Origin: Providencia rettgeri
GTDB lineage: Bacteria; Pseudomonadota; Gammaproteobacteria; Enterobacterales; Enterobacteriaceae
Reading direction: 5' to 3'
Assembly (NCBI RefSeq): GCF_013255915.1
Contig: NZ_CP053896.1
Coordinates: forward strand, 2,728,001-2,792,000
DNA length: 64,000 bases
Below the pieces are notes generated by a model, which saw nothing but the letters and a program-made list of their open reading frames with translations, was not told the origin of the DNA and did no database searches. Both the position numbers and the translations under genes were made by a program. Shown here piece by piece: positions 34,481-39,504 of the stretch (position 1 is its first letter; the number at the start of each line of letters is the position of its first letter).

Positions 34481-34662
34481 CGTAAACACGCCTATTAATG
34501 ATTAATCTGAGCAAGAATAATCTCATTAATATCAATTAAAAAATTTTTTTTGGGGTAATAACGTAATTTTAATTAGAAATAAATATACAACATTTTGTTT
34601 TTTATAAATAAAAAACAAAATCAAGTGAAGAATGAGAATGAGTAACTACATAAAAAAAAGGG

Positions 34663-36955: not shown

Positions 36956-37651
36956 ATGAAAACAATAGGCCTTATTGGCGGCATGAGTTGGGAATCAACG
37001 TTACTTTACTATCAACAGCTTAACGAAGGTATCAAACAACAACTAGGTGGCCTGCATTCGGCTAAAATTGTTTTATATAGCGTTGATTTTTCTGAAATAG
37101 AACAATATCAATCTAGCGGGCGATGGGATTTAGCCGGCCAGTGTTTAGCTGATGCAGGAGAGAGTTTAAAGCTTGCAGGTGCTGATTTCCTTGTTCTTTG
37201 CACAAATACCATGCATAAAGTTGCACCACAAATTGAATCTCAAACAGGTCTTCCTTTATTACATATTGCTGATGCGACGGGTGAACGCATTATACAATCA
37301 GGTATAAAAAAAATTGGACTCCTAGGTACCGCTTTTACTATGGAGCAACCCTTCTATAAGCAAAGATTAATTGAAAAATTTAACGTGGATGTACTAATAC
37401 CTAACCAGCAAGATAGGAAAATAGTTCATAATATTATCTATAATGAACTATGTTTAGGGATAATAAATGACAAATCTAAAAAAGAATATCAGCGTATAAT
37501 GGCATCCCTTGTAGAAAACGGGGCTGAAGGTATTATTTTAGGCTGTACCGAGATAACATTACTAGTTAATCAGAATGATACGACCGTAGGAATATTTGAT
37601 ACTACTGCCATTCATGCTCAAAAAACAGTAGAAGTCGCACTATCTGTTTAA
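36956..37651 (+). CDS. Aspartate/glutamate racemase family protein (YgeA-like)
   Basis: A 231-residue cofactor-independent racemase of the Asp/Glu superfamily. The two catalytic cysteines are present: Cys82 in LVLCTNTMHK and Cys197 in IILGCTEI. The N-terminal GLIGGMSWEST segment is characteristic of aspartate-type racemases such as YgeA. The reaction is the interconversion of L- and D-amino acid, often aspartate or homoserine-type. It lies alone, with an IR of 10 bp 83 bp after the stop. Confidence 0.88.
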   Translation: MKTIGLIGGMSWESTLLYYQQLNEGIKQQLGGLHSAKIVLYSVDFSEIEQYQSSGRWDLAGQCLADAGESLKLAGADFLVLCTNTMHKVAPQIESQTGLPLLHIADATGERIIQSGIKKIGLLGTAFTMEQPFYKQRLIEKFNVDVLIPNQQDRKIVHNIIYNELCLGIINDKSKKEYQRIMASLVENGAEGIILGCTEITLLVNQNDTTVGIFDTTAIHAQKTVEVALSV

Positions 37652-37975
37652 CCAACATTAAATCCTTTCTTTAGTAACTATTGTTAAATATAGTCATTGT
37701 TAAAGAATAGTATCAAAATTAACATATTATCTAGTGCAAAATTTCATTTAATACTATTAAAAAGAATTTTGCACCCATTAAACTTCATCTTTAGATCATA
37801 ATGTATAATAATATCTTTCCCTGTTGTTAATTATACCTGAGCTAATCTTATAAATATCATTTATACTTATTCACCTTAGTTCATCTATCTTAAATTTACA
37901 GATTATTACCCATTGAATATTAATTTTCTTCTAAGATAATAAAAAAATTTATTATCGAATTGACAATGGATCACT
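37652..37975. other. AT-rich intergenic region with an inverted repeat
   Basis: This 324-bp gap contains a perfect 10-bp inverted repeat GTGCAAAATT (37734-37743)/AATTTTGCAC (37765-37774), 83 bp after the racemase. It could be a terminator-like hairpin. No other structure was recognised. Confidence 0.5.
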
Positions 37976-38218
37976 ATGAATAAAAATAATGTTGGTAATG
38001 CCGTGTTGGGCAAATTTATTAAACAAAAACGTATAGAGCATCAAATTACGACAAAAAAAATGGCAGAATTAATATCTATCTCTGAAAAGTCATACATAAA
38101 ATATGAAGATGGGAGCCTTTCCATATTCATTGAACATCTTATGGTAATATCTAACACATTGAATGTAGATGTTAAAACATTATTTGATACCTACGTCAAC
38201 GCACAACCATGTACATAA
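37976..38218 (+). CDS. XRE/MrpJ-like small DNA-binding protein
   Basis: An 80-residue helix-turn-helix protein. The whole length is the XRE-type fold: LGKFIKQKRIEHQITTKKMAELISISEKSYIKYEDG is helices 1-3, and LMVISNTLNVDVKTLF the fourth and fifth. It resembles the fimbria-linked MrpJ family in Proteus and Providencia, which represses flagella when fimbriae are made, but no fimbrial gene lies nearby and it is shorter than MrpJ (about 107 residues). It may be a free-standing paralogue. It begins an AT-rich accessory stretch. Confidence 0.7.
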   Translation: MNKNNVGNAVLGKFIKQKRIEHQITTKKMAELISISEKSYIKYEDGSLSIFIEHLMVISNTLNVDVKTLFDTYVNAQPCT

Positions 38219-38338
38219 GTATATTTCACTATCGTGCAAATTGTGCTTTACATTGAAAGAGTAAGGTATAGGCCTCGACAAGCAAAAATAAGCTAGATAA
38301 CATACAAACATAACTTCAACACGAGATAAGAAATCACT

Positions 38339-38374
38339 ATGAGCCAATCAAAAGCGGAGAAACCTCCCTTCTAA
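38339..38374 (+). CDS. cat leader peptide MSQSKAEKPPF
   Basis: An 11-codon ORF (stop TAA 38372-38374) ends inside the left arm of the stem that hides the cat ribosome site. The peptide resembles the antibiotic-stalled CmlA leader (MSTSKNADK as I recall). It lies 34 bp before cat and is too short for ordinary ORF calling. Confidence 0.7.
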   Translation: MSQSKAEKPPF

Positions 38375-38403
38375 TATCAGTAACATTAACTTATTAGAAG
38401 GGA
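38365..38403 (+). promoter_or_regulatory. Translational attenuator stem hiding the cat Shine-Dalgarno
   Basis: TCCCTTCTAATA (38365-38376) and TATTAGAAGGGA (38392-38403) form a perfect 12-bp stem with a 15-nt loop. The right arm contains the cat ribosome site (AGAAGGG, 6 nt before the ATG). A ribosome stalled on the leader ORF would mask the left arm and free this site. Confidence 0.8.
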
Positions 38404-38408
38404 AAATT

Positions 38409-39050
38409 ATGAATTATACTAAATTTAATATAGAGACATGGTTACGTAGAGAACATTACAATATTTACGAAAAAACCATAAATTGTGGGTTTAGTTTAAC
38501 AACTAAGATAGATATCACAAACCTAAAAAGATATATAGATTCAAATGGTTATGAATTTTATCCATCAGTGATTTATTTATTATCACGGGTAGTTAATACC
38601 TATAAAGAATTTAGGTTTGCAAAAAAAAATGATGAACTAATTTTATGGGATGAAGTGCACCCTAGTTTTACTATCTTCCACAAAGATACCGAAACTTTTT
38701 CTTCATTATGGTGCAAGTATTCTTCAGAAATAACAACATTTATGGAGAACTACCACCAGCAATTAACGTTGCATAAAGATAATCTCGATTTGCACCCTCA
38801 ACCACAGCAAGTTGAAAATGTCTTCTATGTGTCATCTTTGCCTTGGGTTTCATTCGACAGTTTTAATCTAAATATTGCAGATATTACTAATGTTTTTACC
38901 CCGATTTTCACTTTGGGAAAATACTATAGTGAGAATAATAAAATGTGGCTTCCTCTAGCTGTACAAGTGCATCATGCAGTTTGTGATGGCTTCCATGTAG
39001 GTCAGTTTTTAACTACTTTACAAAAGCTATGTGACGAATTAACCCATTAG
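38409..39050 (+). CDS. cat: Type A chloramphenicol O-acetyltransferase
   Basis: A 213-residue trimeric acetyltransferase that inactivates chloramphenicol with acetyl-CoA. The catalytic motif HHAVCDGFH is at residues 188-196 (catalytic His189). Length and the N-terminal FNIETWLRREHYNIY match the classical CATI/CATIII family rather than the xenobiotic type B enzymes. Chromosomal cat genes are known in Proteus and Providencia. It has its own leader peptide and attenuator upstream and a 10-bp inverted repeat downstream. No integron, transposon end or plasmid gene is adjacent. Confidence 0.95.
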   Translation: MNYTKFNIETWLRREHYNIYEKTINCGFSLTTKIDITNLKRYIDSNGYEFYPSVIYLLSRVVNTYKEFRFAKKNDELILWDEVHPSFTIFHKDTETFSSLWCKYSSEITTFMENYHQQLTLHKDNLDLHPQPQQVENVFYVSSLPWVSFDSFNLNIADITNVFTPIFTLGKYYSENNKMWLPLAVQVHHAVCDGFHVGQFLTTLQKLCDELTH

Positions 39051-39067
39051 CCTAGATTACTCTCAGT

Positions 39068-39092
39068 CATGAAGGAAGCTAGCCTTCCTTCA
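39068..39092 (+). terminator. Hairpin after cat
   Basis: A perfect 10-bp stem ATGAAGGAAG (39068-39077)/CTTCCTTCAT (39083-39092) with a 5-nt loop follows cat by 18 bp; the T tract is weak. Confidence 0.6.
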
Positions 39093-39135
39093 TTTATAGG
39101 AAATTAACCTCGTTAAATGGATACTCTCATCATCT

Positions 39136-39276
39136 TTAATTCAAAAATAATAAGCTTATGTAAATGGCATCCCCAATAGCGTCACTTTGAATAAGATATT
39201 CCGTTGGAGTAATCACCATTTTAATGGTGTTGGCGAGTAAAGAAAAAATCAATTCAATAGGATCAGTTGCAGGCAT
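39136..39276 (-). CDS. Small hydrophobic ORF of 46 codons with a strong ribosome site
   Basis: An ATG at 39274-39276 follows GGAGG by 4 nt. The frame (46 codons, starting MPATDPIELIFSLL) runs to a TAA. The peptide is mostly hydrophobic (IELIFSLLANTIKMVIT, AIYISLLFLN) with Thr and Pro, unlike a signal peptide. No homologue is recognised. It lies in the 454-bp space between cat and the nucleoside hydrolase gene, otherwise empty. It could be a toxin-like or regulatory peptide. Confidence 0.45.
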   Translation of the reverse strand: MPATDPIELIFSLLANTIKMVITPTEYLIQSDAIGDAIYISLLFLN

Positions 39277-39504
39277 GTTTCCTCCATATTTTTCTATACA
39301 TTAAGTTCTCATTGGCGCTTATACAATAAGATAAAGGCTATAGCGAAGACACTATCCCCTAACAGATTTTCATCTTTTGATAAATCTCACTGATTAAAAT
39401 TTAAGCATAGAATAATCATAACTTAAAAAACTGGGCCATTACCTATGGTAAGCTCCATTATATTAAATAATTATCAACCGAGGCTCTAGTTGGTACTCTT
39501 TACC

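What the first reader, a model, noticed from the sequence alone, without database searches (positions are those of the whole stretch)
38339..38411. Chloramphenicol-inducible translational attenuator in front of a chromosomal cat gene
The cat ribosome site (AGAAGGG, 6 nt before the ATG) is buried in a perfect 12-bp stem (38365-38376 with 38392-38403). An 11-codon ORF, MSQSKAEKPPF, ends inside the left arm, so a ribosome paused on its early codons would open the stem and free cat translation. This is the logic of cat-86/ermC/cmlA attenuation. From memory the CmlA leader begins MSTSKNADK, so the first eight codons look alike, including an Ala near the stall point, which suits chloramphenicol stalling. 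Attenuation is established for cmlA and Gram-positive cat genes; I know of no report of it for this type A cat in Morganellaceae.
Basis: partly seen in the sequence, partly recalled or inferred. Interest (0 to 1): 0.88.

Follow-up and report, generated by a model that had tools for sequence, protein, structure and literature searches.

The report
Drug-sensing leader before chloramphenicol-resistance gene
A short leader peptide and an RNA hairpin in front of a Providencia chloramphenicol-resistance gene very probably let the drug itself switch the gene on, and the same device sits in front of related genes, including one that is spread on plasmids.

Summary
In detail: an exact 12-bp stem (38365-38376 / 38392-38403) buries the cat ribosome site, and an 11-codon ORF, MSQSKAEKPPF, ends in its left arm. 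Comparison supports translational attenuation. Nineteen distinct elements (11 Providencia, 6 from two other genera, 2 catA2 forms from a third genus and plasmids) keep the layout. The conserved part of the leader is a short patch upstream of the stem: Ala or Thr in 19 of 19, then Glu/Thr, then Arg/Lys (one Asn); the next codon is free. Ala (less so Ser or Thr) one residue before the chain's end is where chloramphenicol stalls ribosomes (PMC11832420, passages). The presumed P-site codon lies 10-12 nt before the stem core in 19 of 19. The pC194 cat leader, read here, is MKKADK. A model of the element finds 14 places in 24 Providencia genomes, all 14 at a cat start. Plasmid catA2 keeps the region in 591 of 594 matching records; catA3 keeps it whole in 1 of 11. 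Induction is not shown, and the leader's own ribosome site is weak in this species. New member of a known kind.

The parts
38275..38303 (+). candidate promoter of leader and cat (TCGACA, 17 nt, TAACAT)
   Evidence: consensus scan, 9 of 12; that scan found 3 sites against a mean of 4.9 in shuffles, so the match alone is no evidence. TCGACA is kept in 6 of the 9 syntenic Providencia sources
38339..38374 (+). leader ORF, MSQSKAEKPPF; presumed stall with Ala6 at -1, Glu7 in the P site, Lys8 in the A site
   Evidence: read; motif conserved in 19 of 19 distinct elements
38365..38376 (+). left arm of the stem, overlapping the end and stop codon of the leader
   Evidence: exact 12 pairs; fold
38392..38403 (+). 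right arm of the stem, holding the cat ribosome site AGAAGGG (38396-38402)
38409..39050 (+). cat, type A chloramphenicol O-acetyltransferase, 213 aa
   Evidence: NCBIfam NF000491, 282.7 bits, cut-off 270

Best explanation
A chloramphenicol-inducible translational attenuator. Without drug the hairpin hides the cat ribosome site, and ribosomes translating the leader pass and let it re-form. With a little chloramphenicol, a ribosome on the leader stalls with Glu7 in the P site and Ala6 one residue back, the context in which the drug holds best. Its front edge, about 16 nt downstream, covers much of the left arm, so the right arm with AGAAGGG is freed and cat is translated; the enzyme then removes the drug and the system resets. 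Shown: leader, stem, masking, and their joint conservation. Inferred: the stall, the opening and the induction. The element is an old part of this cat lineage and travels with the gene.
For: Exact stem over the ribosome site. Leader plus stem in 23 loci, 19 distinct. Ala/Thr 19 of 19 at the motif position, next residue Glu 14 or Thr 5, next Arg 12, Lys 6 or Asn 1, following codon free; P codon to stem core 10-12 nt in 19 of 19. Held-out leader of G408 reads MLSIQTERMPF. Drug context rule (PMC11832420, passages). pC194 leader MKKADK with a 12-bp stem. Modelled opening of the ribosome site when bases under a ribosome at the motif are kept single, 0.00 to 0.48 for the window, and no opening for a stall at codon 3. 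Compensatory stem changes, e.g. L081 against L082. All 14 model hits in 24 Providencia genomes sit at a cat start.
Against: No expression data. The leader's ribosome site is weak in the window and its two nearest relatives, and L074 has a weak stem, -5.2 kcal/mol, with its site already 0.31 unpaired. L076 shows no modelled opening (0.01). Lys at -3 and Asp at 0, which strengthen stalling, are absent from the window leader. Ten of 19 leaders have the less favoured Thr. L043, in the same clade, has no such element. In a 2024 study catA2 isolates had CAT activity (PMC11489765, passages); I could not tell from the passages whether drug had been present in the culture.
Confidence: 0.85

Rival explanations
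1. Leader translation as such, or any ribosome slowdown, opens the stem (coupling or a general translation-stress sensor), with no chloramphenicol-specific stall.
For: The leader runs into the stem in every element, so any ribosome near its end would disturb it.
Against: The Ala/Thr-Glu/Thr-Arg/Lys patch lies outside the stem and is kept while the next codon is free, and it fits the chloramphenicol rule. An E. coli leader without Ala, Ser or Thr is not induced by chloramphenicol, which its authors suggest as the reason (PMC12121999, passages).
Confidence: 0.1
2. The stem merely keeps cat expression low and the leader is a chance ORF.
For: Short ORFs are common; the leader ribosome site is weak in the window.
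Against: The same frame, motif and distance in 19 of 19 distinct elements, and strong ribosome sites before many other leaders, e.g. GGAGG in L049 and L076.
Confidence: 0.03
3. The stem is a transcription terminator between two genes.
For: A stable stem in an intergenic stretch.
Against: No T run follows; the terminator scan of 38150-39150 finds one site only, after cat at 39071. The stem overlaps the cat ribosome site in all 19 elements.
Confidence: 0.02

Closest known systems
cat of plasmid pC194 (Staphylococcus aureus, NC_002013)
   Same: Short leader, MKKADK, with Lys-Ala-acidic-Lys, and a 12-bp stem over the ribosome site of a type A cat
   Different: Leader of 6 codons that ends before the stem; a distant branch of the cat tree; Lys at -3 and Asp at 0
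cmlA leader of class 1 integrons
   Same: Leader of 9 residues, chloramphenicol-dependent stall at KNAD (PMC10192921 and PMC8876359, passages), Ala at -1, acidic residue at 0; Gram-negative
   Different: Controls an exporter, not an acetyltransferase; two alternate stem-loop pairs are described for it, one stem here. I could not fetch a cmlA leader (one search held none)
catA2 (catII) of plasmids
   Same: Same clade; same kind of element, leader MLPIETTRLPSDY
   Different: Thr at -1 and Thr in the P site; mobile. Whether its attenuator is already in print could not be settled
cat-86 of Bacillus pumilus
   Same: Recalled only: leader-controlled type A cat, with a Thr-Asp-Lys stall site
   Different: Gram-positive; no call gave its sequence

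Membership tests
Translationally attenuated chloramphenicol-resistance genes (cat-86 / pC194 cat / cmlA type) | Stem that masks the ribosome site of the resistance gene | tested here: met
   exact 12-bp stem over AGAAGGG; kept in 19 of 19
Translationally attenuated chloramphenicol-resistance genes (cat-86 / pC194 cat / cmlA type) | Short translated leader ORF just upstream that runs to or into the stem | tested here: met
   ORF 38339-38374 and conserved frame; that it is translated is not shown, and its ribosome site is weak here
Translationally attenuated chloramphenicol-resistance genes (cat-86 / pC194 cat / cmlA type) | Stall site fitting chloramphenicol's nascent-chain preference, at a distance that opens the stem | tested here: met
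   Ala/Thr in 19 of 19, P codon 10-12 nt before the stem core; rule; modelled opening in 18 of 19, L076 not
Translationally attenuated chloramphenicol-resistance genes (cat-86 / pC194 cat / cmlA type) | Drug-dependent stall on the leader and induction of the gene | not testable with these tools
   needs toeprinting and a reporter
Type A chloramphenicol acetyltransferase | Score above the curated family cut-off | tested here: met
   NF000491, 282.7 against 270 bits
A described RNA family of Rfam 15 | Match to a family at its gathering score | tested here: not met
   cmscan of 37600-39400: two matches far below their gathering scores, neither on the element

The most novel reading that the evidence does not exclude
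A chromosomal, lineage-wide chloramphenicol sensor is the ancestral state of the CatII/CatIII clade in Providencia and its relatives. It went along with catA2 onto hundreds of plasmids, apparently unremarked, and was cut off from catA3 when that gene was mobilised. Nature has varied the stall residue between Ala and Thr, which gives a ready series for testing how the -1 residue tunes the drug response.
Probability: 0.6. Interest if true: 0.62.

Novelty: new member of a known kind. Interest (0 to 1): 0.5.

Why it matters
It extends drug-sensing cat leaders, known from Gram-positive bacteria and from cmlA, to a widespread Gram-negative cat clade. It ties natural Ala/Thr variation in leaders to the present context rule for chloramphenicol, and it suggests that catA2 on plasmids may be drug-inducible, which constructs holding the coding sequence alone would miss.

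Tried and rejected
Rejected: a terminator (no T run); a described Rfam element (37600-39400 only); the first-eight-codon likeness to CmlA as a sign of kinship (residue 2 is Ser in 4 of 19 leaders).

Led nowhere or limited: 50 kb of pAR060302 fetched for a cmlA leader holds no annotated cmlA. The search for leader strings in papers hit 2,362 papers, nearly all unrelated among the 20 listed. MAFFT misplaces part of the stem of the catA2 rows, so RNAalifold on it finds only 7 pairs; stems were also compared by script. Upstream reading was not complete: of 46 cat places and 45, loci were given for 30 each (all 21). The script assumed the match start at base 1501 and dropped L004, L009, L019, L025, L027, L035, L038-L041, L084, L085, L089 and L090 (no open frame there), and L022 and L034 found no start; further lacks L103, L106, L113 and L116. 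So absence of the element in Gram-positive and distant cats is only partly tested; the table shows no comparable element in those it did read. The family scan with the model scored only 10 candidates per genome under stricter filters. Whether the catII/catIII papers of about 1988-1990 noted an attenuator could not be checked: those I tried are not held. Library searches listed no title or abstract reporting one for this clade; two searches listed 15 of 202 and 20 of 2,362 papers. I saw passages of nine papers and no whole text; the other listed papers were seen as listings only.

Full report
What is there. The cat gene at 38409-39050 (CatA family, 282.7 bits against a cut-off of 270) has its ribosome site AGAAGGG (38396-38402) in the right arm of an exact 12-bp stem, 38365-38376 with 38392-38403. 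A leader ORF, 38339-38374, MSQSKAEKPPF, stops inside the left arm. The fold is -17 kcal/mol; z is -3.79 with 0 of 200 shuffles as good for 38339-38411, and -2.46 with 3 of 200 for the wider stretch. Perfect repeats of this size number 9 in the window against 0.2 expected; two of 59 tallied ORF starts have one over the ribosome site, cat and an AT-only one.

Relatives. A cat match was found in 15 of 24 Providencia genomes, 44 of 392 sampled from the family and 43 of 394 from the order. Reading upstream of the fetched loci gave 23 loci with leader and stem, 19 distinct: 11 from Providencia, 6 from two unnamed genera of the family (g83, g138), and 2 catA2 forms shared by a third genus (g93) and plasmids. 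Against this, L043 (55% identical, same clade) has an open, strong ribosome site and no such leader, and other cats in Providencia (L083, L087, L088, L091) lack the element.

The leader is conserved as a peptide. In 19 of 19 the residue at the motif position is Ala (9) or Thr (10), followed by Glu (14) or Thr (5), then Arg (12), Lys (6) or Asn (1); before it stands Lys (10), Gln (6), Glu (2) or Thr (1), and before that mostly Ile (9) or Ser (8). The codon after the patch has 16 forms in 19. The presumed P-site codon lies 10-12 nt before the CTTCT core of the left arm in 19 of 19. The patch lies outside the stem, so pairing does not explain it. It is not frozen: of differing codon pairs in it, 85 were synonymous and 360 not, moving among few residues. 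A held-out leader, before a broken catA3-like gene of G408, reads MLSIQTERMPF.

The drug rule. Chloramphenicol stops peptide-bond formation best when the residue before the last is Ala, less so Ser or Thr; Asp at the last place or Lys at -3 strengthens it (PMC11832420, passages). Here Ala6 is at -1, Glu7 in the P site and Lys8 in the A site; Lys at -3 and Asp at 0 are absent. The CmlA leader stalls at KNAD (PMC10192921, passages) and has 9 residues (PMC8876359, passages). The pC194 cat leader, read directly, is MKKADK before a 12-bp stem. An E. coli leader without Ala, Ser or Thr is not induced by chloramphenicol; its authors suggest that lack as the reason (PMC12121999, passages).

The switch. 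With the bases under a ribosome at the motif kept single, the modelled chance that the cat ribosome site is unpaired goes from 0.00 to 0.48 in the window and to 0.23-0.74 in 17 others; L076 stays at 0.01, and L074 starts at 0.31. A stall at codon 3 opens none. Stems keep pairing through changes on both sides: A-U to G-C between L081 and L082 and between most elements and catA2; RNAalifold on the MAFFT alignment counts one of 7 pairs with such changes.

Specificity and history. A covariance model of the 19 finds 14 places in 13 of 24 Providencia genomes, and all 14 overlap the start of a cat match. Only one, in G408 (E 1.2e-7), was neither in the training set nor identical to a member. In 392 genomes of the family it finds 9, all training loci. 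In a tree of 76 cat proteins, the 21 Gram-negative carriers lie in one clade of 23 rows, of moderate support (89/71); the other two rows are L043 and plasmid catA3. The 30 rows of the CatA1/CatA4 clade hold no carrier, and pC194 lies elsewhere. In 9 of the 11 Providencia sources the neighbours are the same: racemase, HTH gene, element, cat, small ORF, so there the gene is settled in the chromosome.

Mobile relatives. A 151-nt stretch over the catA2 element matches 594 plasmid records, 591 with at least 80% covered, and 46 of 5,426 E. coli genomes; leader frames were read in two plasmid records only (L093, L096). The 92-nt G408-type catA3 element matches 11 plasmid records; 1, from Edwardsiella piscicida, holds it whole, and the other 10 match from base 47 or 53 of the query on, that is, without leader and left arm. 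That catA3 there is no longer drug-controlled is inference. A 2024 study found CAT activity in isolates with catA2 and cloned coding sequences under a constitutive promoter; in the passages seen, attenuation is raised for cat_pC221 only (PMC11489765). Activity in catA2 isolates may speak against tight control; I could not tell whether drug was in the culture.

Weak points. The leader ribosome site is poor in the window species and its two nearest relatives; both of those have Thr, and one a weak stem, so the device may be fading there. An upstream HTH gene keeps its place in Providencia and could act on cat transcription as well. Nothing here shows induction.

Novelty. I found no report for this clade in the held library, but older cat papers are mostly not held, so an earlier remark on catA2 is possible. 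The mechanism is known; the member is new as far as I can tell.

Noticed in passing
37976-38218 (+): Small HTH (XRE-like) gene just upstream of the element, kept in place in 9 Providencia sources; it matches only general repressor/antitoxin models far below their cut-offs. It could regulate cat transcription.
   Followed up: partly
L089 and L092: A broken catA3-like gene in a Providencia genome (G408) is identical to plasmid catA3 over its first 120 nt and still has its leader and stem, while plasmid L092 has lost the leader.
   Followed up: partly
L085 (G401): The cat gene is reduced to a fragment beside the same racemase and an HTH gene whose match falls in two overlapping pieces.
   Followed up: no
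L086 (G397, P. rettgeri RB151): A second chromosomal cat with the catA2 element, identical over the element to plasmid L093 and to genus g93, so catA2 has also entered a Providencia chromosome.
   Followed up: no
34592-34621: An AT-only inverted repeat (13 pairs) just upstream of an ORF start at 34632; unexplained.
   Followed up: no
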